A DNA stretch of 64,000 nucleotides from Seonamhaeicola sp. Its GTDB lineage: Bacteria > Bacteroidota > Bacteroidia > Flavobacteriales > Flavobacteriaceae. The DNA lies in assembly GCF_028281565.1 (NCBI RefSeq), contig NZ_JANQJQ010000042.1:1-64000 (forward strand). Reading direction: 5' to 3'. The translations under genes were made by a program, and so were the position numbers. The stretch's first letter is position 1. The number at the start of each line of letters is the position of its first letter. Of this stretch, positions 4,001 through 62,446 are shown piece after piece. A model generated the notes under the pieces. The model saw nothing but the letters and a program-made list of their open reading frames with translations. It had not been told where the DNA came from and ran no database searches.

Positions 4001-4067
4001 GTCATGCTGAACTTGCTTCAGCATCTTATAACACATAATGAGACACTGAAACGAGTTCGGGGTAACA
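4001..4067. repeat. REP-like palindromes upstream of crcB
   Basis: GTCATGCTGAACTTGCTTCAGCATCT contains the inverted repeat TGCTGAA/TTCAGCA (4005-4011 and 4017-4023). A more degenerate second unit with ACTGAAACGAGTTC follows at 4042-4067. It belongs to the window-wide palindrome family with outer TGTCAT and ATCT. Confidence 0.65.
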
Positions 4068-13684: not shown

Positions 13685-13711
13685 TGTCATTCTGAACTTG
13701 TTTCAGAATCT
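13685..13711. repeat. REP-like palindrome
   Basis: TGTCATTCTGAACTTGTTTCAGAATC contains the inverted repeat ATTCTGAA/TTCAGAAT (13689-13696, 13702-13709). Same family as the other TGTCAT-ATCT palindromes. Confidence 0.7.
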
Positions 13712-14988: not shown

Positions 14989-15483
14989 ATGAGACCAATT
15001 ATTGTTGTATTTATTTGTGTTTTAATGTTAAATTCCTGCAAAAAGAAAGTTGAAGAAACACCAAAAGAACCGGTTAAAGTGGAGTACGCATCCTTTGGAA
15101 AAGAAATTATAGCTGATGATGCTATTGCCTCATCGTCCATGTTAAAGCATTACAAAGATATGACTACCGGAGATAGTATAAATTCTAAAATGACTGCAAC
15201 GGTGACCAAAGTTTGTCAGGCAAAAGGTTGTTGGATGACACTGGATTTAGGTGATGGAAATGAGGCCATGGTAAAGTTTAAAGATTACGGCTTTTTTGTA
15301 CCTAAGGATATTGCAGGAAAAGCGGTTATTGTAAATGGAAAGGCTTATGTAAAAGAAGTCCCGGTTGAAGAACTGCAACATTATGCTGAAGATGCCGGAA
15401 AATCTGCTGAAGAAATTGCATCCATAACGGAACCTAAAAGAACCTTTTCTTTTGAAGCCGATGGTGTTTTAGTAGCGCAATAG
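14989..15483 (+). CDS. DUF4920 lipoprotein
   Basis: A 164-residue protein with a lipoprotein signal peptide (lipobox LNSC, Cys17). The remainder is a DUF4920 domain with an OB-like strand pattern and the conserved VCQAKGCWMTLDLG block (about 76-89), whose CxxxGCW cysteines suggest metal or redox chemistry; VKFKDYGFFVPKDI follows. Function is unknown. The TAG stop overlaps the GTG start of mnmD by one base, so the two are translationally coupled, an arrangement without an obvious functional link. Confidence 0.85.
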   Translation: MRPIIVVFICVLMLNSCKKKVEETPKEPVKVEYASFGKEIIADDAIASSSMLKHYKDMTTGDSINSKMTATVTKVCQAKGCWMTLDLGDGNEAMVKFKDYGFFVPKDIAGKAVIVNGKAYVKEVPVEELQHYAEDAGKSAEEIASITEPKRTFSFEADGVLVAQ

Positions 15484-16199
15484 TGAAGCGGGAAATTATT
15501 ATTACTGCAGACGGTTCCACTACCATTCATATGCCTGAATGGAACGAGCAATACCATTCTAAACATGGCGCCATTCAAGAGGCATATCATGTATTTATAA
15601 AGCATGGTTTGCATTATGCCTGTCATCCTGAACTAGATTCAGGATCTCATCAAACCTGTCATTCTGAGCGAAGTGAAGAATCTCTTGAAAAATTGTCTAT
15701 TTTAGAAATAGGCTTCGGTACGGGGCTGAATGCTCTTATTACCTTACTGGAAGCAGAAACACTTCAAACCAGGATCAATTATGTCGGCGTAGAGGGGTAT
15801 CCGGTTGATTTGAATGAAGTTAAACAACTGAATTATGCCTCAGCGTTACATTGTGATCGATTTCTTTTTGACAAACTTCACAATCTTCCATGGGAAGAAG
15901 AACATCAGGTCACTGATTACTTTTCATTGACAAAACAGCAAAAGTTCTTTGATGAGATACAGGAGCAGGATACTTTCAATCTCATTTATTTTGATGCCTT
16001 TGGAGCGCGTGTTCAACCGGAATTATGGACAGAGACTATCTTTAAAAAAATGTATGAAGCTTTAAAAATAAAGGGTGTTTTGGTAACCTATTCAGCAAAA
16101 GGAAGTGTACGCAGAGCCATGCAGGCGGTTGGTTTTAGAGTAGAGAAGCTTCCGGGGCCACCAGGTAAGAGAGAAATGTTGAGAGCTTCAAAACAATAA
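15483..16199 (+). CDS. mnmD: tRNA (5-methylaminomethyl-2-thiouridine34) methyltransferase, MnmD
   Basis: A 238-residue Rossmann methyltransferase of the MnmD family (the N-terminal half of E. coli MnmC, without the FAD domain). The SAM-binding block is ILEIGFGTGLNALIT and the late motif IYFDAFGARVQPELW. It makes the final methylation of mnm5(s2)U34 in tRNA. The start is GTG 15483, overlapping the upstream stop. Residues about 46-69 (HPELDSGSHQTCHSERSEES) do not belong to the family: they are an in-frame translation of two palindromic repeat units (15621-15683) inserted just before the SAM motif. The frame is intact, so the protein is probably still made with a surface loop. Confidence 0.85.
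   Translation: MKREIIITADGSTTIHMPEWNEQYHSKHGAIQEAYHVFIKHGLHYACHPELDSGSHQTCHSERSEESLEKLSILEIGFGTGLNALITLLEAETLQTRINYVGVEGYPVDLNEVKQLNYASALHCDRFLFDKLHNLPWEEEHQVTDYFSLTKQQKFFDEIQEQDTFNLIYFDAFGARVQPELWTETIFKKMYEALKIKGVLVTYSAKGSVRRAMQAVGFRVEKLPGPPGKREMLRASKQ
15621..15683. repeat. Two tandem REP-like units inside the mnmD coding region
   Basis: Unit 1 (15621-15647) has ATCCTGAA/TTCAGGAT; unit 2 (15657-15683) starts TGTCATTCTGAGCGAAG and ends AGAATCT. The units begin 36 nt apart and are read in frame by mnmD, adding about two dozen residues. Confidence 0.85.
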
Positions 16200-19595: not shown

Positions 19596-19940
19596 CATTC
19601 CCTCGAAAGAGGGAATCCCTTTAAATATATTCGGAAAGGTCTTTCCAATCAGGATTTAGACTATTTATTAAACTGATTTTCCATTCCCTATTCCATTTCT
19701 TTATTTGTCGCTCTCTTTTAATTGAGTTATTAACGTATTTTGTTGTTTCAAAATAAACAAGTTTGGTTACGTTGTATTTTCCCGTAAAAGATTTTGAACT
19801 GTTATTTTTGTGTTGTTTTAATCTCTCTTTTAATTGTTTTGATCTTCCAATATATAATACAGTATGATTTTTGTTTGTTAAAATATATACATAATGGATG
19901 TCCATAACCCTTTTGAGATTTCCGCTTTCGCGGAAATTAA
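19596..19940 (-). mobile_element. GIY-YIG/REP cassette A, between trpB and trpA
   Basis: A GIY-YIG gene is bounded by palindromes ATTCCCTC-GAAA-GAGGGAAT (19597-19616) and ATTTCCGC-TTTC-GCGGAAAT (19918-19937). The second is an inverted relative of the first, with the loop CGAAAG conserved and stem bases changed in matching pairs. The gap from palindrome to start codon is 12 nt and from stop codon to palindrome 4 nt. Compare cassette B at 25849-26219. Confidence 0.6.
19621..19905 (-). CDS. GIY-YIG nuclease family protein, copy A
   Basis: A 94-residue single-domain GIY-YIG protein (UPF0213/COG2827 type). The two strand motifs are HYVYILTN and VLYIGRS, followed by the catalytic arginine helix LKERLKQHKNN, the KLVYFETT strand and IKRERQIKKWNREWKISLIN with the metal-binding glutamate. 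GIY-YIG nucleases nick or cut DNA and are often selfish. This gene interrupts the trp operon in the same orientation and fits tightly between inverted palindromes, so it reads as the nuclease of a small mobile cassette. It is clearly homologous to the gene at 25879. Confidence 0.85.
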   Translation of the reverse strand: MDIHYVYILTNKNHTVLYIGRSKQLKERLKQHKNNSSKSFTGKYNVTKLVYFETTKYVNNSIKRERQIKKWNREWKISLINSLNPDWKDLSEYI

Positions 19941-19952
19941 AAATAATTAAAT

Positions 19953-21134
19953 TCAGATTTTAAAATAATCAATATAATTCTGTAAATCCTTGTCACCACG
20001 TCCCGAAAGGCTCATCACTACAACATCATCCGGTTTAAATTCCTTTTGACTAAAAATAGCTAAAGCATGAGAACTTTCAATAGCTGGAATGATGCCTTCC
20101 AGTTCACATAACTCCAATCCGGCTTTCATGGCTTCATCATCCGTTATAGACATAAATTCGGCACGCCCTGTTTTACATAAATGTGCATGCATGGGGCCTA
20201 CTCCCGGATAATCTAATCCTGCTGAAATAGAATAGGGCTCTGTTATTTGTCCGTCATTAGTCTGCATCAACAAGGTTTTACAACCGTGAATGATACCTTC
20301 TTTTCCTAAAACCGATGTGGCCGCACTTTCTCCGGAGTCCACGCCCAAACCGGCAGCTTCAACAGCAATGATCTTCACGTTGTCTTCATGTAAAAAATGA
20401 TAGTAAGTTCCGGCAGCATTGCTACCACCACCAATACAGGCAGCTACATAATCCGGATTCTCCCTGCCTTCCTGTTCTTTAAGCTGCCATTTAATTTCTT
20501 CGGAAATAACCGCTTGAAACCTGGTAACCATATCCGGGTAGGGGTGTGGCCCAATGGCAGAACCAATGATGTAATGTGTATTTACCGGATTGTTTATCCA
20601 ATCACGAATGGCTTCATTGGTAGCGTCTTTTAAGGTGCGGCTTCCCGATAGCGCAGGTACCACTTTAGCCCCTAGCATTTTCATTCGGGCTACATTTGGT
20701 GCCTGACGTGCTATATCAATTTCACCCATATAGACGATACATTCCAAGCCCATAAGCGCACAAACCGTGGCAGTTGCCACACCGTGTTGTCCAGCTCCGG
20801 TTTCAGCAATAATTCTGGTTTTACCCAGACGTTTTGCCATCAGGATTTGCCCGATAGTGTTATTGATTTTATGGGCTCCCGTGTGATTTAGATCCTCACG
20901 CTTTAAGTAGATTTTGGTATTGTATTTTTCTGAAAGACGTTTTGCAAAATACAAAGGCGAAGGACGTCCAACATAATCTTTTAACAATTGGTTGAACTCG
21001 TTTTGAAAGTCAGGCTCAGCCATGACCTTAAGGTAGTTTTGTCGTAACTCCTCTACATTTGGATATAGCATTTCCGGAATGAAAGCCCCTCCAAACTCAC
21101 CATAATACCCTTTTTCGTTTACGTTGTAATTCAT
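19953..21134 (-). CDS. trpB: Tryptophan synthase beta subunit
   Basis: About 393 residues from ATG 21134; the ATG at 21155 would start in sequence next to an inserted palindrome. The PLP lysine is in [14 protein letters not shown], the phosphate-binding glycine loop is [13 protein letters not shown], and the C-terminal block is SLSGRGDKD. It condenses indole with serine to tryptophan. It is trpB1 type by length and motifs, paired with trpA. Two REP units lie between it and trpF. Confidence 0.96.
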
Positions 21135-21149
21135 TTTATCGTTATATAT

Positions 21150-21224
21150 TGTCATTCTGACACTGAGGTACTCTAAGTGGAAGAATCTATTGATAAGATG
21201 CTTCGACTGCGCTCAGCATGACAG
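21150..21224. repeat. REP-like units at the trpF-trpB junction
   Basis: TGTCATTCTGACACTGAGGT to AGAATCT (21150-21187), then ATGCTTCGACTGCGCTCAGC to CATGACAG (21198-21224). The second unit supplies the final codons and the TGA stop of trpF (residues Leu-Ser-Cys). Confidence 0.7.
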
Positions 21225-21833
21225 TTTGTTTTTAAATTCCTTTAATTTTTCAATATTCTTTAATCCGGGTTCTATTTCAAATTTGCTATTTACATCCAGG
21301 GCATAGCAATATTTTGAAGCTTCACTTTGTTTAAACTCTTTAATAGCATCAATTTGCTCTAACCCAATACCACCACTTAAAAAGAAGGGTTTTGTTGACG
21401 GGTAATCTTTCAATACATTCCAGTCAAAAGTGTAACCGTTGCCTCCGGGAAGTTTTCCTTTGGTGTCAAAAAGAAAATAGTCTACAAAATCCTCATAAGG
21501 TTTAAGTATACTAAAGTCAAATTCATCTTTTATAGAAAACACTTTAATGACCTCCACATTAGTAGATTTAAGGAGTCTGCAGGTTTCCGGTGATTCATGA
21601 CCGTGCAATTGAACAGCAGAAAGCTGATGCCTCTCTATTTGGCTGGAAATGTATTCAACACTGTCATCAACAAAAACACCGGTTTTTTTTATTGAATCTG
21701 GTAATTCCGTAATGGTGGTGTCAAAATACCTTGGGGACTTTTCATAGAAAATAAATCCAAGATAGTCAGGTTGCAATGTTGCAACTTGCTCCATATTATC
21801 CTGATATTTCATGCCGCAGACCTTCAGTTTCAT
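21213..21833 (-). CDS. trpF: Phosphoribosylanthranilate isomerase
   Basis: A 206-residue TIM barrel with KVCGMKYQDN at the N-terminus (catalytic Cys), the VQLHGHESPE strand, LFDTKGKLPGGNGYTFDW with the catalytic Asp, and the LSGGI phosphate loop followed by ALDVNSKFEIEPGLKN. It isomerises phosphoribosylanthranilate to CdRP. Its start overlaps the trpC stop by 4 nt. The last three codons and the stop lie inside a REP-like repeat, so the native C-terminus has been replaced or slightly trimmed; the catalytic core is intact. Confidence 0.95.
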   Translation of the reverse strand: MKLKVCGMKYQDNMEQVATLQPDYLGFIFYEKSPRYFDTTITELPDSIKKTGVFVDDSVEYISSQIERHQLSAVQLHGHESPETCRLLKSTNVEVIKVFSIKDEFDFSILKPYEDFVDYFLFDTKGKLPGGNGYTFDWNVLKDYPSTKPFFLSGGIGLEQIDAIKEFKQSEASKYCYALDVNSKFEIEPGLKNIEKLKEFKNKLSC

Positions 21834-22615
21834 GCTTCCAGTTCTTTTATAAATTTCGTAGCACCCGCTCCGGGATTATCTGTTTTCATAAAGTTCTCGC
21901 CAATTAAAAAGCCTTTATAGCCATACGGTTGTAACTCTTTAATGGCATTTACGCTGCTAATACCACTTTCCGATACTTTTACAAAATCATCGGGAATGAT
22001 ATTGCTTAATGATTTACTGGTCTCTAAACTAACCTCGAATGTTTTTAAGTTTCTGTTGTTTACCCCAAGCATATCCAGGCTTGGCATGATAGATTTGTGT
22101 AATTCTTCCTCGTTATGAACTTCTAAAAGCACCTCTAAATTCAAACTTTTGGAAAACTCTGAAAACTGCTTTATTTCTTCTCTTGTTAAAATAGCAGCTA
22201 TTAATAAAATGACATCCGCTCCAAAAGCTTTTGCCTCCAGTATTTGATATTGGTCAATGATAAATTCCTTTCGCAACAAAGGTAGATTACAACTGGCCCT
22301 GGCAAGTAACAGGTCATCTAAAGAACCACCAAAATATTTACCATCAGTGAGTACCGACATGCCACAAACTCCGGCACTTTCATAACCCTCGGCTACATCC
22401 TGAACATTTAAACCGTTATTGATAATTGATTTTGAAGGTGAACGTCTTTTATGCTCAGCAATGATTCCCGATTTACTTGTTCTTAATCTATTTGCCAATG
22501 ACACTGTTTCTCTTTCAAACAGAACGGACTGTTCCAGCTGAGAAACAGGAATCAAATGCTTTCTCAGATCAACTTCTTGTCGTTTATCAATTACTATTTT
22601 ATCTAAAATATTCAT
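21830..22615 (-). CDS. trpC: Indole-3-glycerol phosphate synthase
   Basis: About 261 residues from ATG 22615 (MNILDKIVIDKRQEV); ATGs at 22621 and 22624 are possible. Family blocks are IIAEHKRRSPSKSIIN (catalytic Lys and substrate Ser), VLTDGKYFGGSLDDL, LLRKEFIIDQYQI, LLEVHNEEEL, LGVNNRNLKTFEV and VSESGISS. It closes CdRP to indole-3-glycerol phosphate. It overlaps trpF by 4 nt, and is separated from trpD by a pair of REP units. Confidence 0.96.
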   Translation of the reverse strand: MNILDKIVIDKRQEVDLRKHLIPVSQLEQSVLFERETVSLANRLRTSKSGIIAEHKRRSPSKSIINNGLNVQDVAEGYESAGVCGMSVLTDGKYFGGSLDDLLLARASCNLPLLRKEFIIDQYQILEAKAFGADVILLIAAILTREEIKQFSEFSKSLNLEVLLEVHNEEELHKSIMPSLDMLGVNNRNLKTFEVSLETSKSLSNIIPDDFVKVSESGISSVNAIKELQPYGYKGFLIGENFMKTDNPGAGATKFIKELEA

Positions 22616-22621
22616 TTTCAT

Positions 22622-22682
22622 CAACCTGAACTTGTTTCAGGTTCTCATAATTTGTGTGATGCTGAACTAAATTCAGCATGAC
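22622..22682. repeat. Pair of REP-like palindromes between trpD and trpC
   Basis: AACCTGAA/TTCAGGTT (22623-22630, 22636-22643) and TGCTGAA/TTCAGCA (22660-22666, 22672-22678), the latter followed by TGAC. Tandem but not identical members of the window-wide family, filling the intergenic space. Confidence 0.75.
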
Positions 22683-22683
22683 G

Positions 22684-23676
22684 CTATTTGCTTAACTCTA
22701 TCAATGTGTCTAAACTTTGTTTTGCTTTGCCGGAAAACAAAGATTCTTTTGCTATTTCAAATCCTCTCTGATGTGATATTTGTTTTGATGTAGCAATTGC
22801 CAAACCGGCGTTGGCACACACCACGTTGTTTTGCGCTTCGGTACCGTTACCACTTATAATATCTACAAATATTTTGGCAGCATCTTCAACAGTGTCTCCC
22901 CCAAAAATAGCTTCTTGTTTAATTTTAGCAAGTCCTAAATCTTCCGGAGCTAAAAGCTTTTCCGTATGATTGGAAACAATTTTAGCTTTCCCGGTTAATG
23001 AAATCTCATCATAGCCATCCAGGGCATAAACAATATTGTAGTTCTTATCCGTGTTTTGATAGATAAAACTATACAGGCGTAAAAGCTCCAAACTAAAAAC
23101 ACCAAGCATTTGATTTTTTGGAAATGAAGGATTAACCATAGGGCCCAGCATGTTGAAAAAGGTCTTAACACCTAACTCACGACGAATAGGGGCCACGTTT
23201 TTCATGGCCGGGTGAAATAAAGGCGCATGTAATATGCATATTCCGGCTTTATCTAAACAGCGTCTTAAAAAATCTTCATTGTTAGAGAATTTTACACCTA
23301 GATTTTCCATAACATTAGATGAACCGGACGTGGATGATACACCATAGTTACCATGCTTAGCAACGTTAACGCCTGTACCTGCAGTTATAAAAGACGATAA
23401 GGTTGAGATATTGAATGTATTTTTACCGTCACCACCGGTGCCCACGATATCGATAGCATTAAAATCTTTCAAGTCCACAGCAACACAAAGCTCTAAAAGG
23501 GCATTCCTAAAGCCTTGTAGTTCTTCAATAGTAATGCTTCGCATCATATAAACCGACAGGAAACAAGCTATCTGGCTTGGGTTATACATATCATTGGAGA
23601 TATTTACAATAATCTGTTTGGCCTCCTCAGAGGAGATGGTTTCATGATTTATTAATCTGTTAAGTATGTCTTTCAT
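22684..23676 (-). CDS. trpD: Anthranilate phosphoribosyltransferase
   Basis: A 330-residue class III phosphoribosyltransferase with the PRPP-binding GTGGDGKNTFNIST block (about 81-94), KHGNYGVSSTSGSSNVMENL and FFNMLGPMVNPSFP. It transfers phosphoribose to anthranilate. It is stand-alone and not fused to TrpG, as usual in flavobacteria. trpG precedes it with a 93-nt gap in which no hairpin is evident. Confidence 0.96.
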   Translation of the reverse strand: MKDILNRLINHETISSEEAKQIIVNISNDMYNPSQIACFLSVYMMRSITIEELQGFRNALLELCVAVDLKDFNAIDIVGTGGDGKNTFNISTLSSFITAGTGVNVAKHGNYGVSSTSGSSNVMENLGVKFSNNEDFLRRCLDKAGICILHAPLFHPAMKNVAPIRRELGVKTFFNMLGPMVNPSFPKNQMLGVFSLELLRLYSFIYQNTDKNYNIVYALDGYDEISLTGKAKIVSNHTEKLLAPEDLGLAKIKQEAIFGGDTVEDAAKIFVDIISGNGTEAQNNVVCANAGLAIATSKQISHQRGFEIAKESLFSGKAKQSLDTLIELSK

Positions 23677-23769
23677 AATTTTTTCTTAACTCGTTCCAAA
23701 GGAGCGGAGACTTTTAAATTATTTTCTTTTTTAGGAGTAAATACTGCCTACTGCAACTGTTTACTGAGA

Positions 23770-24336
23770 CTAGTTATTAACCCAATTTTCTAAAATCTTC
23801 TTCCCTTCCGGCGTTAAGACAGACTCAGGATGGTACTGAACACCTTTTACATCGTATTCCTTATGGCGCAATGACATAACCTGTCCGTTTGCATCATAAG
23901 AAGTGGCTTCTAAACTGTCCGGCAAATTAGGATGGACTACCCAGGAATGGTAACGACCAACTTCTATGTTTTTTTCCAGGCCATTAAAAATGGATTCGTT
24001 ATCAACACAAATTTCCACCTGGGTGGCTACACCGTGATACACCTCATCCAAATTAATAAGTGTACCACCAAAAACTTCACCGATAGCCTGTTGTCCAAGG
24101 CATACACCCAAAATACTCTTTGTAGAAGCATATTTTTCAATAATGGCTTTTAACAATCCGGCTTCATCAGGAATTCCGGGACCCGGTGATAATACAATTT
24201 TATCAAACGGTTCAACATCTTCCAACTCCAATTTGTCATTTCTGTACACAGTAACATCACAGTTTAAATCTTCTAAATAATGTACAAGATTATATGTGAA
24301 ACTGTCGTAATTATCAATAACTAATACTTTCTTCAT
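23770..24336 (-). CDS. trpG: Anthranilate synthase glutamine amidotransferase subunit
   Basis: A 188-residue class I glutamine amidotransferase: IDNYDSFTYNLVHYL at the N-terminus, oxyanion block LSPGPGIPDEAG, nucleophile Cys in ILGVCLGQQAIGE (about 76-88), and the His-Glu pair in GVQYHPESVLTPEG. It supplies ammonia to TrpE. The same fold serves folate synthesis as PabA, but the position directly after trpE identifies it as TrpG, perhaps amphibolic. Confidence 0.94.
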   Translation of the reverse strand: MKKVLVIDNYDSFTYNLVHYLEDLNCDVTVYRNDKLELEDVEPFDKIVLSPGPGIPDEAGLLKAIIEKYASTKSILGVCLGQQAIGEVFGGTLINLDEVYHGVATQVEICVDNESIFNGLEKNIEVGRYHSWVVHPNLPDSLEATSYDANGQVMSLRHKEYDVKGVQYHPESVLTPEGKKILENWVNN

Positions 24337-24429
24337 TTTTATTTTTTTATGCCACGATTACATGAATGTTAATGTGGTAATAATTTCTTTAATTTTTTTA
24401 CTGCAAACTGAGTACTGCTACTGTTTACT

Positions 24430-25836
24430 TTAAATGTCTTCTGCTAACTGAATAGCTTTTGTTAATGCTCCTAATTTATTATATACTTCCTGTAACTCAC
24501 TTTCCGGGTTTGATTTAGAAACCAATCCTGCACCGGCCTGCCAGTTTAGTTTGTAATCTTTACTCAAAAAGGTCCTGATCATGATAGCGTGATTAAAATT
24601 ACCATCAAAATCCATAAAACCAATGGCGCCACCATAAAACCCTCTGCTTGTTTTTTCGTATTGTTCTATGAGTTGCATAGCCCTGTGTTTAGGGGCACCA
24701 CTCAAAGTTCCCGCAGGAAAGGTGTCGGCTACCACTTGCATGGTTGAAGTGGTGTTGTGTTTTTGACCTGTTACTTTACTTACTAAATGGATCACATGCG
24801 AGAAAAACTGAACTTCGCGGTAGGTGTCTACTGTTACCTGACTTCCGTGTCGACTCAAATCATTTCTGGCCAAGTCTACCAGCATAACGTGTTCTGCATT
24901 TTCTTTATCATCTTTGATCAGAGCATCAGCCAACACGGCGTCTTTTTCATCATCACCGGTACGCCTAAAAGTTCCGGCAATAGGATGTATTTCAGCCAAA
25001 CCATCCGTAACAATGAGTTGCGCCTCCGGAGAACTTCCAAATATTTTAAAATCGCCATAATCGAAATAGAAAAGATAAGGAGAAGGGTTGATACTTCTTA
25101 AAGCACGATACACATTAAAATCATCGCCAGTAAACTCTTGAGAAAAACTTCTGGATAACACCAACTGAAACACATCCCCTCTGGCACAATGTTTTTTAGC
25201 GAATTCCACATGCTGAAGAAACTCGTCATCTGTTAAGTTTGAAGCAATATCTCCTTTAGAGTTAAAATTGTAAGAAGCAAAGTTCTGAACGTTAATTAGT
25301 TTATCAATAGCGTCAATATTATTCTCTGTATCGTCATAACAATGTGCAAAAATGTATGCTTCATTTTTAAAATGATTGATGGCTATGATGTTTTGGTAAA
25401 CCGCATAATAAGCATCCGGAATTTCAACAGAGTTTTCTTTTTTACCAATGTCAATATCTTCAAAATAACGAACCGCATCATAAGCTGTATACCCAAAAAT
25501 ACCATTGTTTATAAACTTGAAGTTTTCTTTAGAAGTGACGTCAAATCGTTTTGTGAATTGGTAGATTTCTTCAACTACATCCACTTTATCAGTAATGTCT
25601 AATGAGGTCGAACTACCATCCGGAAAGGTTTGTGATATAACTTCATTTTCAATTTTTATGGAGGCAATCGGGTTGAAACAGATATATGAGAAATTCTTAT
25701 GATTTCTATGGTAATCGCCACTTTCTAACAAAATACTGTTGGGGTATTTATCCCTGATCTTATAGTATACGGTAACAGGTGTTATAGTATCTGTTAAGAT
25801 GCGTTTATGATGCGTATAAAGGCTGTATGTTTTCAT
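24430..25836 (-). CDS. trpE: Anthranilate synthase component I
   Basis: A 468-residue chorismate-utilising enzyme with an N-terminal region that normally binds feedback tryptophan and a C-terminal catalytic domain with GDVFQLVLSRSF, HPIAGTFRRTGDDEKDA, HVMLVDLARNDLSRHGS, FPAGTLSGAPKHRAMQ and GFYGGAIGFMDFDG. It converts chorismate plus ammonia to anthranilate. It is the first biosynthetic gene of the operon. A GIY-YIG cassette separates it from its attenuator, so the nuclease gene is on the same regulated transcript. Confidence 0.96.
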   Translation of the reverse strand: MKTYSLYTHHKRILTDTITPVTVYYKIRDKYPNSILLESGDYHRNHKNFSYICFNPIASIKIENEVISQTFPDGSSTSLDITDKVDVVEEIYQFTKRFDVTSKENFKFINNGIFGYTAYDAVRYFEDIDIGKKENSVEIPDAYYAVYQNIIAINHFKNEAYIFAHCYDDTENNIDAIDKLINVQNFASYNFNSKGDIASNLTDDEFLQHVEFAKKHCARGDVFQLVLSRSFSQEFTGDDFNVYRALRSINPSPYLFYFDYGDFKIFGSSPEAQLIVTDGLAEIHPIAGTFRRTGDDEKDAVLADALIKDDKENAEHVMLVDLARNDLSRHGSQVTVDTYREVQFFSHVIHLVSKVTGQKHNTTSTMQVVADTFPAGTLSGAPKHRAMQLIEQYEKTSRGFYGGAIGFMDFDGNFNHAIMIRTFLSKDYKLNWQAGAGLVSKSNPESELQEVYNKLGALTKAIQLAEDI

Positions 25837-25848
25837 AAATAATTAATT

Positions 25849-26219
25849 GTCATTTCCGCGAAGGCGGAAATTCTTTATTTAAATATTGATTTCAAAAAAA
25901 TAACTTAGGTCATTCCAATTCGGATTAAAGTCATTTATTAAATTTATTTTCCATTCTCTATTCCACTTTTTTATTTGTTTTTCTCTTTTTATGGCATCAT
26001 CTGGAGTTTCAAATTTTTCGTAATAAACTAATTTGTTTAAATTATATTTATTTACGAATCCCTTACTGTATCCCTTTTTATGTTGGAGAATTCTTTGTTT
26101 TATATTTCCAGAAAACCCAATATAAATTATACCTTCTTTTTTATCAGACAATATATATACATAATATGCGCCTTTACGATTCATTATTGTTTTTAGATTT
26201 CCGCCTTCGCGGAAATGAC
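25849..26219 (-). mobile_element. GIY-YIG/REP cassette B, between trp attenuator and trpE
   Basis: A GIY-YIG gene lies between ATTTCCGC-GAAG-GCGGAAAT (25852-25871, preceded by TGTC) and its exact inverted copy ATTTCCGC-CTTC-GCGGAAAT (26197-26216, followed by GACC). The outer ends read TGTCAT and ATGACC, giving a terminal inverted repeat of about 23 nt. The palindrome-to-start gap is 12 nt, the same as cassette A. No target-site duplication is obvious. Confidence 0.65.
25879..26184 (-). CDS. GIY-YIG nuclease family protein, copy B
   Basis: A 101-residue GIY-YIG protein, homologous to the one at 19621. Motifs are YYVYILSD and IIYIGFSG, the arginine helix IKQRILQHKKGYSKGF, KLVYYEKFETP and IKREKQIKKWNREWKINLIN with the conserved Glu. 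The shared C-terminal KREKQIKKWNREWK block shows common descent. It is inserted 42 nt upstream of trpE and downstream of the trp attenuator, in the sense orientation, so its expression should follow tryptophan supply. Probable DNA endonuclease of a mobile cassette; no host function is implied by the context. Confidence 0.85.
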   Translation of the reverse strand: MNRKGAYYVYILSDKKEGIIYIGFSGNIKQRILQHKKGYSKGFVNKYNLNKLVYYEKFETPDDAIKREKQIKKWNREWKINLINDFNPNWNDLSYFFEINI

Positions 26220-26233
26220 CTAAAGATAGATAT

Positions 26234-26263
26234 AAAAAAAGCCTGTCGTGAATGACAAGCCTT
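26234..26263 (-). terminator. trp operon attenuator terminator
   Basis: A 10-bp stem (26263-26254 with 26247-26238, minus strand AAGGCTTGTC and GACAGGCTTT, two G-U pairs), 6-nt loop ATTCAC and seven T. The loop and first bases of the 3' arm (TTCACGA, 26252-26246) can pair with TCGTGAA in the leader (26305-26299), giving an antiterminator. Confidence 0.88.
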
Positions 26264-29239: not shown

Positions 29240-31471
29240 ATGGTTAAAAATCTATGTTTTTATCTTTTATTCTTAATGCTGTGCTCAAATCTTCATGGGC
29301 AGGAAGTAAACATTTCTACGCGTTTTTCTCAAGATGGCACTTTGTATAAAAGTATAGATGAGCATGTAAACGAATTAACGCAACCCATTGCGGACTTTAA
29401 AGAAAATCAAAAATGTATCGTTATTGATTATTTAGGTAATGATAATTATAAAGTAAAATACAAGGACTGGATTGGGCTGGTAATTATTGATGATCTGGTT
29501 GTAAATGACGCATTAGAGGATCTGTATTATGATTATCAGGATAAAGAGCGTGAGCGTAGAAGAAAAGAAGAAGAAGCCAGGAAGCAGAGAATTTATGAGA
29601 TTGTCAATAAAGAGAAAATAGAAGAAGAAAGACGCTTAAAAGAGCAGCGTCGACTGGATTCCATAGCTAAAGCTGAAGAGGCTGAGCGTAAACGTATTGC
29701 TTATGAGAAAGAAGAGGCGAGAAAACGAGAGGAGGCCTTACGAGAACAACGTCGATTGGATTCTATAGCCAAAGCAGAAGAGGCTGAGCGTAAACGTATC
29801 GCTTATGAACAGGAACAGGCCAGAAAGCGAGAAGAAGCTTTGCGAGAACAACGTCGACTGGATTCCATAGCTAAAGCTGAAGAGGCTGAACGCAAACGTA
29901 TTGCTTATGAGAAAGAACAGGCGAGAAAACGAGAGGAGGCCTTACGAGAACAACGTCGATTGGATTCCATTGCTAAGGCAGCAGAGGCTGAACGGAAACG
30001 TATTGCCTATGAACAGGAACAAGCCAGAAAGCGGGAGGAAGCCTTACGAGAACAACGCCGACTGGACTCCATAGCCAAAGCAGCAGAGGCTGAACGCCAA
30101 CGTATCACCTATGAAAAGGAACAGGCCAGAAAACGAGAAGAAGCCCTTCGTGAGCAACGTCGACTGGATTCCATAGCCAAAGCAGAAGAAGCCGAGCGTA
30201 AACGTATTGCTTATGAGAAAGAACAGGTAAGGAAACGGGAAGAAGCTTTGCGAGAACAACGTCGATTGGATTCTATTGCTAAGGCAGCAGAGGCTGAACG
30301 GAAACGTATTGCCTATGAACAGGAACAAGCCAGAAAGCGGGAGGAAGCCTTACGAGAACAACGTCGACTGGATTCCATAACTAAGGCAGAAGAGGCCGAA
30401 CGCAAACGTATTGCTTACGAGAAAGAACAAGCGAGAAAACGAGAGGAAGCCTTACGAGAACAACACCGACTGGATTCCATAGCCAAAGCAGCAGAGGCTG
30501 AACGCAAACGTATTGCTTATGAGAAAGAACAGGCGAGAAAACGAGAAGAAGCATTACGTGAACAACGTCGATTGGATTCCATAGCCAAAGTTGAAGAGGC
30601 TGCACAACGGGCTGCTGCATTATACCTAAAGCGTAAACAGGATTCTATAGCGAAAATACAGGAGATTGAAAGAAAACGTATTTTACAGGAGCAAGAGGAG
30701 GCTAGAAAGCGGGAGGCCGCTTTACGTGAGCAACGTCGACTAGATTCCATTGCGAAGGCAGAAGAGGCCGAACAAAAACGTATCGCCTATGAACAGGAAC
30801 AAGCAAGAAAACAAGAGGAAACTTTACGTGAGCAACACCGATTGGATTCCATTGCTAAGGCTAAAGAGGCCGAACGTAAACGTATTGCTTATGTCCAGCA
30901 ACAAGCCAGAAAACGGGAAGAGGCTTTACGGGAACAACGTCGACTGGACTCCATAGCCAAAGCTAAAGAAGCTGAACGTCAACGTATTGCTTTAGAAAAA
31001 GAAAAGCCTGAAGAAAAGAAATTTGACCTAAAGGCTTTGGAAAGGCAAAAATTCAGAAGGACTTGCCACTATGCCATGAATGAGTTTGATCACTTATACC
31101 AGGAAAAAGTGGTTTTGACAAAGGCCTATACCATAAGTAAAAACTTAACCATTGAGTTGTACAAAAAAGGAAATAAGGTTGATATCTTCTTTAATTCTCC
31201 ATTAGATCTGGGGTGCGTCAGTGGTTATTCTAATAAAAAATCTCATGTTAGAGTGGAATTGGAAAGTAATGAGGTTATTACGTTTTATCATACTTACGGA
31301 ACGAATTGTAGTGATTTTGAATTCAAGGGAAAACTATCCCAACAACAAATGGCTAGTCTGAAGAAATCGAATATAAAATCAATAACCTTAAAAGGAACCG
31401 AAGGTTCAAAGCTGATCACTGACATAGATTATAAAGAATTTTTTATAGATAAGTTAAAGTGTATAGAGTAA
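29240..31471 (+). CDS. Secreted tandem-repeat coiled-coil protein
   Basis: A 743-residue protein with a Sec signal peptide (1-20, cleavage near LHGQ). An N-terminal SH3-like beta domain (about 21-95) is followed by a long helix made of 13 copies of a 34-residue unit (RLDSIAKAEEAERKRIAYEK, then QARKREEALREQ). Copies 1-9 and 11-13 have constant length; copy 10 has a 22-residue insertion. The C-terminal domain (about 595-743) is globular with four cysteines and no recognised family. The repeats predict a rigid rod of several hundred angstroms, plausible as a periplasmic or surface spacer. Function is unknown. Confidence 0.8.
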   Translation: MVKNLCFYLLFLMLCSNLHGQEVNISTRFSQDGTLYKSIDEHVNELTQPIADFKENQKCIVIDYLGNDNYKVKYKDWIGLVIIDDLVVNDALEDLYYDYQDKERERRRKEEEARKQRIYEIVNKEKIEEERRLKEQRRLDSIAKAEEAERKRIAYEKEEARKREEALREQRRLDSIAKAEEAERKRIAYEQEQARKREEALREQRRLDSIAKAEEAERKRIAYEKEQARKREEALREQRRLDSIAKAAEAERKRIAYEQEQARKREEALREQRRLDSIAKAAEAERQRITYEKEQARKREEALREQRRLDSIAKAEEAERKRIAYEKEQVRKREEALREQRRLDSIAKAAEAERKRIAYEQEQARKREEALREQRRLDSITKAEEAERKRIAYEKEQARKREEALREQHRLDSIAKAAEAERKRIAYEKEQARKREEALREQRRLDSIAKVEEAAQRAAALYLKRKQDSIAKIQEIERKRILQEQEEARKREAALREQRRLDSIAKAEEAEQKRIAYEQEQARKQEETLREQHRLDSIAKAKEAERKRIAYVQQQARKREEALREQRRLDSIAKAKEAERQRIALEKEKPEEKKFDLKALERQKFRRTCHYAMNEFDHLYQEKVVLTKAYTISKNLTIELYKKGNKVDIFFNSPLDLGCVSGYSNKKSHVRVELESNEVITFYHTYGTNCSDFEFKGKLSQQQMASLKKSNIKSITLKGTEGSKLITDIDYKEFFIDKLKCIE
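29648..31015 (+). repeat. 102-bp tandem repeat array inside the coiled-coil gene
   Basis: Near-identical 102-bp units start at 29648 and continue every 102 bp to 30565 (nine copies), followed by a 168-bp variant (30566-30733), two more 102-bp copies (30734, 30836) and a partial one from 30938. The period preserves the frame. It is a protein-coding minisatellite and not CRISPR. Confidence 0.9.
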
Positions 31472-60799: not shown

Positions 60800-60825
60800 T
60801 GTCATTCCCGCGAAGGCGGGAATCC
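60800..60825. repeat. REP palindrome, GIY-YIG-cassette type
   Basis: TGTCATTCCCGCGAAGGCGGGAATCC: ATTCCCGC-GAAG-GCGGGAAT. Same form as the ends of cassette B, differing only by T/C and A/G stem pairs; a solo copy. Confidence 0.85.
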
Positions 60826-62419: not shown

Positions 62420-62446
62420 TTGTCATTCCCGCGAAGGCGGGAATCT
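62420..62446. repeat. REP palindrome, GIY-YIG-cassette type
   Basis: TTGTCATTCCCGCGAAGGCGGGAATCT: ATTCCCGC-GAAG-GCGGGAAT, identical in core to the copy at 60800. A solo copy upstream of a methyltransferase. Confidence 0.85.

What the first reader, a model, noticed from the sequence alone, without database searches (positions are those of the whole stretch)
19596..26219. Two GIY-YIG nuclease cassettes framed by inverted REP palindromes, both inserted in the trp operon
Seen: two homologous GIY-YIG genes (19621-19905, 25879-26184) each sit between palindromes of the same family placed in inverted orientation. The gap from palindrome to start codon is exactly 12 nt in both, beginning CTmAAAA; the stop codon is 4-7 nt from the other palindrome. 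Cassette B has exact inverted copies (25852-25871, 26197-26216). Cassette A has diverged arms with compensatory changes. Solo copies of the same palindrome (60800, 62420) lie elsewhere. Known: REP palindromes in proteobacteria are moved by RAYT (Y1) transposases flanked by them. Inference: a GIY-YIG endonuclease plays the same part here, making a roughly 350-bp mobile unit that also seeds non-autonomous palindromes. Sense insertion in an operon, leaving genes intact, suggests selection for polar-neutral sites.
Basis: partly seen in the sequence, partly recalled or inferred. Interest (0 to 1): 0.8.

Follow-up and report, generated by a model that had tools for sequence, protein, structure and literature searches.

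The report
Nuclease genes bracketed by matching palindromes
Small GIY-YIG nuclease genes in many bacterial phyla sit between inverted copies of a palindromic DNA repeat whose sequence changes along with the nuclease, which makes them a strong candidate for the unknown enzyme that spreads one of the two great families of bacterial palindromes.

Summary
In detail: two GIY-YIG genes (94 and 101 aa), each between inverted 8-bp-stem palindromes, lie in the trp operon of a Flavobacteriaceae genome. It is far more general than the window. In 160 relatives, nuclease and flanking palindrome co-vary: pairs from different genomes and unrelated contexts share a flank in 2% of cases below 40% nuclease identity but 78-83% above 70%; sequence 100 nt further out gives 1-28%. 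The palindromes carry an outer GTC tag, AT-starting stem and CCA/CT tail, like the "CGTC-tagged" REP superfamily, described in 2013 as lacking a dedicated transposase. The association recurs in Alphaproteobacteria, Calditrichota, Smithella, Rickettsiales, Saccharibacteria and others. Best explanation: a REPtron-like element with a GIY-YIG nuclease in place of the RAYT transposase. Movement is inferred from empty sites and matched dispersed copies; no chemistry was shown. The two cassettes differ: B is tagged and sporadic; A is an ancient, tag-less, vertically inherited resident of the trpB-trpA gap (12 of 12 sampled, dN/dS about 0.05). The solo palindromes at 60.8 and 62.4 kb belong to another stem family. 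Eight searches for GIY-YIG in an open-access library listed no paper linking it to REPs.

The parts
19597..19616 (.). 3' arm (relative to the gene) of cassette A, palindrome ATTCCCTCGAAAGAGGGAAT, no GTC tag
19621..19905 (-). GIY-YIG nuclease A, 94 aa, between trpB and trpA
19918..19937 (.). 5' arm of cassette A, palindrome ATTTCCGCTTTCGCGGAAAT (+ strand), no tag
25849..25871 (.). 3' arm of cassette B with its tag: GTC + ATTTCCGCGAAGGCGGAAAT
25879..26184 (-). GIY-YIG nuclease B, 101 aa, upstream of trpE
26197..26219 (.). 5' arm of cassette B with its tag: ATTTCCGCCTTCGCGGAAAT + GAC; whole unit 25849-26219, 371 bp
26233..26263 (-). trp attenuator-type terminator hairpin that cassette B follows; the same hairpin precedes trpE directly in close relatives without the cassette
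   Evidence: the attenuator reading is mine, from the run of Trp codons and the hairpin
21151..21222 (.). nuclease-less inverted REP doublet between trpF and trpB (GTCATTCTG... / ...CAGCATGAC)
22620..22682 (.). nuclease-less inverted REP doublet between trpD and trpC (CTGAAC-type stems; right tag GAC, left tag degenerate)
60801..60823 (+). solo tagged palindrome GTC-ATTCCCGCGAAGGCGGGAAT, TTCCCGC stem family
62422..62444 (+). solo tagged palindrome of the same TTCCCGC stem family
4001..4024 (+). solo tagged palindrome GTC-ATGCTGAACTTGCTTCAGCAT
13686..13709 (+). solo tagged palindrome GTC-ATTCTGAACTTGTTTCAGAAT

Best explanation
The cassettes belong to a widespread REPtron-like element in which a minimal GIY-YIG endonuclease, not a RAYT (Y1/HUH) transposase, is the partner of GTC-tagged palindromes (the CGTC-REP superfamily). 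Shown here: the nuclease gene often lies between inverted, outward-tagged REPs; the stem sequence follows the nuclease clade; catalytic residues are nearly invariant; sites with and without the cassette exist; solo and nuclease-less doublet copies of the same stems are dispersed, more so where the matching nuclease is present. Inferred: the nuclease recognises the REP hairpin (extruded cruciform, or single strand at replication), cuts beside the GTC tag, and the released or broken end is copied into new sites by host repair, in cis for the cassette and in trans for solo and doublet REPs. Some cassettes, like A at trpB-trpA, have settled: they have no tag and descend with the operon, possibly with a host role.
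For: Flank symmetry: 46 of 118 against 2 of 134 and 13 of 400; 56 of 89 in a second set chosen by protein alone, 50 of 83 after removing 6 loci that overlap the first. Tag in that second set: 56 of 61 upstream and 51 of 64 downstream hairpins carry an outer GTC/GAC, against 2 and 6 on the inner side (50 of 55 and 47 of 58 without the overlap); other genes of the first set's loci 0 of 4 and 1 of 11; tRNA-dwelling GIY-YIG clade 0 of 9 and 1 of 17. Co-variation: Mantel r 0.467, largest of 2000 permutations 0.079. Copy number: TTCCTGC repeats median 16 in 9 genomes with the matching nuclease clade, 1 in the other 127 genomes with a GIY-YIG hit, p 2e-5. Filled and empty sites: trpE leader filled in 2 of 29; bioD-bioA filled in 2 of 24 bioA loci, with bioD running straight into bioA in several others; trpB-trpA filled in 5 of the 28 loci where trpA follows, with 4 nt or less between the genes in 7. 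Purifying selection and invariant Y10, Y21, R31, K79. No Y1 transposase hit at E<=0.001 in 39 of 59 genomes.
Against: No cleavage, binding or movement was shown; GIY-YIG enzymes are not known to join strands (recalled). By the strict hairpin rule only 81 of 160 (upstream) and 71 of 160 (downstream) Flavobacteria genes have a hairpin within 110 nt, 45 and 38 of them tagged; imperfect stems are missed, but some genes lack one or both sides. Cassette A is vertically inherited. Clades also keep fixed sites (trpB-trpA, bioD-bioA), which looks like homing. Six genomes with 5 or more of either repeat have no GIY-YIG hit, and the 9 genomes also hold more of the unmatched repeat (median 6 against 1, p 0.002). 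The window's own genome has 3 weak Y1 hits (best 7e-9). No target duplication was resolved.
Confidence: 0.7

Rival explanations
1. Free-standing homing endonuclease: the nuclease cuts empty intergenic sites in operons (trpB-trpA, bioD-bioA, trpE leader) and is copied in by repair; the palindromes are only its target or its terminators.
For: Clades keep fixed sites: 12 of 12 sampled gA members at trpB-trpA, KYRTTF-type at bioD-bioA in two genera, all 4 sampled gB-type genes in the trp operon; empty sites coexist.
Against: Other clades share a stem in unrelated contexts; dispersed solo and doublet REPs of the same stem are not explained; cassette A shows no sign of horizontal transfer (0 of 66 pairs with nuclease synonymous difference under 0.6 of that of trpA).
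Confidence: 0.2
2. Passenger: the REPs are moved by a RAYT or another transposase and the nuclease gene simply rides between two of them.
For: Some genomes have the repeats without any GIY-YIG hit (6 of the 63 without a hit hold 5 or more of either repeat); some relatives carry many Y1 genes (14 hits in G012) and the window's genome has 3 weak ones.
Against: Y1 hits at E<=0.001 in only 20 of 59 genomes; flanks of the Y1-locus genes printed show other palindromes (read by eye); stem-nuclease co-variation and conserved catalytic residues need a functional link; Di Nocera 2013 also found no CGTC REP at tyrosine transposases.
Confidence: 0.1
3. Host function: the palindromes are RNA hairpins that end or protect messages, and the nuclease is a domesticated repair or regulatory enzyme, above all at trpB-trpA.
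For: dN/dS about 0.05 (46 of 66 pairs unsaturated), vertical descent, arms kept palindromic through paired changes (C-G, A-T and T-A at one stem position; a switch of several pairs in the right arm) with no tag; 132 of 148 downstream of a same-strand gene.
Against: Patchy presence with sites lacking it; does not explain stem-nuclease co-variation in unrelated contexts or the same layout in other phyla.
Confidence: 0.15

Closest known systems
REPtrons: RAYT/TnpA_REP transposase genes flanked by GTAG-tagged REPs
   Same: small gene between inverted REPs, outer tag at the foot of the hairpin, dispersed solo copies and inverted doublets, enzyme and REP co-vary
   Different: enzyme is a GIY-YIG endonuclease, not a Y1/HUH transposase; tag is GTC, not GTAG
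CGTC-tagged REPs (Di Nocera, De Gregorio and Rocco 2013; include Neisseria dRS3 and Rickettsia RPE-4/RPE-6)
   Same: tag CGTC/TGTC, 8-9 bp stem starting AT, loop 4-5, tail often CCA; taxa overlap (Sinorhizobium, Azospirillum lipoferum, Novosphingobium, Neisseria, Bacteroidetes)
   Different: that paper found no dedicated enzyme; here a nuclease gene is found with them
UPF0213-type GIY-YIG proteins (solved: 1ywl, 1zg2)
   Same: the only two solved chains matched by sequence, E 1e-5 and 3e-4; similar length
   Different: palindrome association not described for them in anything I found (one search gave no paper)
Free-standing GIY-YIG homing endonucleases
   Same: catalytic fold, intergenic residence at fixed sites, empty and filled alleles
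   Different: flanking tagged palindromes and dispersed non-autonomous copies

Membership tests
REPtron (RAYT + GTAG REP) | Y1/HUH transposase (PF01797) | tested here: not met
   both proteins match PF01541 and no Y1 family
REPtron (RAYT + GTAG REP) | gene bracketed by inverted REPs with dispersed copies | tested here: met
REPtron (RAYT + GTAG REP) | GTAG-type tag at the hairpin foot | tested here: not met
   tag is GTC
REPtron (RAYT + GTAG REP) | enzyme co-varies with its REP | tested here: met
CGTC-REP superfamily | unpaired CGTC (or TGTC, CCTC) tag at one end | tested here: met
   I tested GTC, not the first letter: outer GTC on 56 of 61 upstream hairpins of the named set and 45 of 81 of the Flavobacteria set; met in cassette B, not in cassette A
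CGTC-REP superfamily | 8-9 bp stem with AT first, loop 4-5 | tested here: met
   20-nt arms, 8-bp stem, 4-nt loop in 23 of 24 arms of the trpB-trpA clade, one imperfect; cassette B; examples
CGTC-REP superfamily | tail CCA | tested here: inconclusive
   CCA or CCAG in many loci (by eye); CT in the window's cassettes
GIY-YIG nuclease superfamily | GIY and YIG tyrosines, catalytic Arg and Glu | tested here: met
   Y10 156/156, Y21 158/158, R31 160/160, E68 158/159; which residues are catalytic is recalled
Homing endonuclease | site-specific residence with empty alleles | tested here: met
Homing endonuclease | horizontal spread discordant with host genes (cassette A) | tested here: not met
   nuclease and trpA/trpB diverge together, Spearman 0.71 and 0.68
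Homing endonuclease | cutting of the empty allele and conversion | not testable with these tools
   needs biochemistry or crosses

The most novel reading that the evidence does not exclude
Minimal GIY-YIG nucleases are the long-missing movers of the CGTC-tagged REP superfamily in many phyla (including the dRS3, RPE and possibly the Sinorhizobium RIME-like repeats): a class of mobile element that moves palindromes by nuclease cutting and host repair, with no transposase, each nuclease clade reading its own hairpin.
Probability: 0.5. Interest if true: 0.9.

Novelty: new variant of a known kind. Interest (0 to 1): 0.8.

Why it matters
CGTC-tagged REPs are one of two large REP superfamilies and were reported to lack a dedicated transposase; who makes and spreads them was left open in 2013. 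This gives a concrete, testable enzyme with matched substrates in many clades, a natural library of nuclease-hairpin pairs, and a second, unrelated solution to the task that RAYTs perform. If cutting is hairpin-specific it is also a new recognition mode for a 95-residue nuclease.

Tried and rejected
Chance pairing of hairpins: rejected. RAYT as the common mover: unlikely. Cassette A as a recent insertion: rejected. A Sinorhizobium empty site: the relative carries the nuclease too and differs in neighbouring repeats. Rhizobium plasmids: the listed records without the nuclease align to the left part only, no junction read. Target duplication: nothing clean at trpE; an 8-nt match (AAAGGAGC) at bioD-bioA is weak. 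PADLOC: only weak hits to PDC-S14 and UzuA models, not taken as defence. NCBIfam: no model above cut-off. No structure prediction was run.

Rows dropped: of 220 detected genes 11 were duplicates and 16 more had short flanks or under 75 aa; of the remaining 193, 33 in the basal clades, most of them beside tRNA genes, were left out before the co-variation count of 160. The named set of 89 keeps truncated genes (L337, L359, L368) and 6 loci that are also in the Flavobacteria set. Two of the 30 genes are already in the named set (L312, L372). The gene lists behind searches come from capped match tables, best scores first. In one search one genome (G202, one TTCCTGC repeat) was left out of the pasted list by mistake and counted as 0; the 9 matching genomes are unaffected. 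The KYRTTF and HNYW genome sets are those I had seen, not a census. Paper listings show 20 of 41 and 20 of 37 papers.
Full report
What is in the window. Two genes for GIY-YIG proteins of 94 and 101 aa lie on the minus strand at 19621-19905 and 25879-26184. Each lies between palindromes with 8-bp stems and 4-nt loops. Cassette A is in the trpB-trpA gap. Cassette B is in the trp leader, after the attenuator-type terminator and before trpE. Cassette B has an outer GTC on each side (25849-25851 and, as GAC, 26217-26219), giving a 371-bp unit; cassette A has no such tag. The same operon holds two inverted REP doublets without a nuclease, at 21151-21222 and 22620-22682. The window is in the genus of Seonamhaeicola sediminis by inference: same-genus genome G004 has a 211,394-bp contig, the length of the S. 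sediminis contig behind L345, and the nuclease of L345 is identical to one in my Flavobacteria set.

Own genome. It has 15 PF01541 hits, 13 of them small proteins. By eye, 7 of the 13 have related palindromes on both sides, 3 more on one side or in unclear form, 2 lie by tRNA genes and 1 is unclear. Stem families differ: CTGAACT..TTCAG, CTGAGCGCAGTCGAAG, TTCCTG, TTTCCGC, TTACGAGG.

Test against chance. For 118 GIY-YIG genes from genomes among 59 searched (the window's own included), the local alignment between the upstream flank and the reverse complement of the downstream flank scored 24 or more in 46, against 2 of 134 other genes in the same loci and 13 of 400 pairs of flanks from different genes. 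In 89 loci chosen by protein alone (80 from the genome collection, 9 from plasmid records) it was 56 of 89, and 50 of 83 without 6 loci shared with the first collection.

Tag. With a strict rule (perfect stem of 7 or more within 110 nt), the named set has an upstream hairpin in 61 of 89 with outer GTC in 56 (inner control 2), and a downstream hairpin in 64 of 89 with outer GAC in 51 (inner control 6). The Flavobacteria set has 81 of 160 with 45 tagged (control 3), and 71 of 160 with 38 tagged (control 7); the 12 trpB-trpA cassettes in it are untagged. Other genes of the same loci: 4 of 95 with 0 tagged, 11 of 95 with 1 tagged. The tRNA-dwelling clade: 9 of 33 with 0, 17 of 33 with 1. On at least one side, 93 of 160 Flavobacteria genes have a strict hairpin, 59 on both; 115 have a hairpin or a flank score of 24 or more, so about a quarter show neither. 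Thirty genes from 10 genomes of other groups, 2 of them already in the named set: 12 of 19 upstream and 10 of 16 downstream hairpins tagged, with 4 and 4 on the inner side, some of the latter being tagged repeats in the opposite orientation.

Co-variation. Among 160 genes, pairs from different genomes without homologous neighbours (12,221 pairs) share a flank segment (score 26 or more) in 2, 2, 10, 26, 48, 78 and 83% as nuclease identity rises from under 30% to over 80%; sequence 100 nt further out gives 1, 1, 1, 2, 11, 12 and 28%. Mantel r is 0.467; 0 of 2000 permutations reach it, the largest being 0.079. The rise in the outer control at high identity shows that some homologous neighbourhoods escaped the filter.

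Dispersed copies. In 199 genomes of the family, one per genus, TTCCTGC....GCAGGAA repeats number a median of 16 in the 9 genomes whose nuclease is at least 80% identical to the clade flanked by that stem, 1 in the other 127 genomes with a GIY-YIG hit (p 2e-5; 8e-5 after taking off two for the cassette), and the reversed pattern is 0 throughout. The unmatched CTGAACT repeat is also raised in those 9 (6 against 1, p 0.002). Genomes seen with the KYRTTF clade, flanked by CTGAACT, have more of that repeat (8 against 0, p 3e-5) but not clearly more TTCCTGC (3 against 1, p 0.09). Six genomes with 5 or more of either repeat have no GIY-YIG hit. The trans link is supported but partly confounded by a general richness in repeats.

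Filled and empty sites. trpE leader: cassette in 2 of 29 genomes, no nuclease hit in the other 27, plus a third relative found by protein (L134). bioD-bioA: cassette in 2 of 24 bioA loci (L388, L396); in L389, L391, L392, L394 and L397 bioD runs into bioA without an insert, and in L390 an inverted TTCCTGC doublet without nuclease takes the place. trpB-trpA: cassette in 5 of the 28 loci where trpA follows, one decayed, with 4 nt or less between the genes in 7, and other palindromes in several more.

The two cassettes have different histories. All 12 sampled members of nuclease A's clade, the window's included, lie between trpB and trpA; 4 of these loci were fetched with a TrpB query, 8 by the nuclease. 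Median synonymous difference is 0.71 for the nuclease, 0.66 for trpB and 0.71 for trpA; nuclease identity follows trpB and trpA identity (Spearman 0.68, 0.71; trpB with trpA 0.74); no pair of 66 has a nuclease much less diverged than trpA; dN/dS median is 0.05 over the 46 unsaturated pairs. The arms stay palindromic through paired changes. There is no outer GTC. This is long vertical descent under selection with losses. Nuclease B is in the trpE leader of three species and a relative is between trpG and trpD, so the 16 sampled genes with the TTTCCGC stem all live in trp operons, at three positions; why is unexplained.

Enzyme. Y10, Y21, G23, R31, H35, E68, K72 and K79 of nuclease B are kept in all but at most 4 of 156-160 proteins. 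The only solved structures matched by sequence are two UPF0213 proteins. PF01541 covers residues 7-81 of 101, so there is no room for a second large domain.

Placement. 132 of 148 scorable cassettes lie downstream of a same-strand gene; 12 of 160 were not scorable. The gene may be read from the upstream promoter, or insertion may favour gene ends.

Known work. Di Nocera and others 2013 (PMC3733652; I read the abstract, the CGTC-family section, the transposase section and passages) define CGTC REPs: tag CGTC often TGTC or CCTC, 8-9 bp stems starting AT, loops 4-5, tails mostly CCA, in five phyla including Bacteroidetes, with Neisseria dRS3 and Rickettsia RPE-4/6 as members, and state that they lack a dedicated transposase and are not found at tyrosine transposases; GIY-YIG does not occur in its main text. 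A 2018 survey of HuH enzymes (PMC6006769; passages only) cites that paper and has no GIY-YIG in its main text. Of ten library searches eight used the term GIY-YIG; in what they listed (titles and abstract starts; two lists were cut at 20) I saw no paper linking these nucleases with REPs. The library holds open-access papers only, so prior description elsewhere is possible.

Mechanism. Shown: the partnership, its specificity by co-variation, and presence/absence at sites. Inferred: recognition of the hairpin, cutting at the tag, copying by host repair, trans action. GIY-YIG enzymes are not known to join strands (recalled), so this would not be a transposase in the strict sense. Homing at fixed sites is a serious rival and may coexist.

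Noticed in passing
L130 (three tandem units before tRNA-Pro at 2844-2919), L129, L013, L002, L103, L090, L094: A separate GIY-YIG clade sits inside or beside tRNA genes with partial copies of the tRNA on both sides; in L130 three copies spaced 304 bp, each a nuclease plus the 5' part of the tRNA, precede a tRNA-Pro that ARAGORN calls. Looks like a tRNA-targeting relative.
   Followed up: partly
window 15622-15683, inside ORF 15483-16199: Two tagged REPs in direct orientation lie in frame within a protein-coding ORF, adding a CHPELDSGSHQTCHSERSEES peptide.
   Followed up: partly
L390 upstream of bioA; L051 between trpB and trpA: Nuclease-less inverted REP doublets occupy the very gaps that hold cassettes in relatives.
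   Followed up: no
L298 against L387 (Sinorhizobium, hflX-mazG gap): The nuclease is conserved and surrounded by varying numbers of paired palindromes resembling the RIME repeats of rhizobia (name recalled).
   Followed up: partly
L247 and genome G203: 20 GIY-YIG matches in one 3-Mb genome, several in one cluster.
   Followed up: no
L046, L049 between trpB and trpA: Another repeat (GCGTTAGGGATTGA...) fills the same gap in cassette-free relatives.
   Followed up: no
window 29240-31471: Large protein with long near-identical repeats of a charged, coiled-coil-like segment (EEALREQRRLDSIAKA).
   Followed up: no
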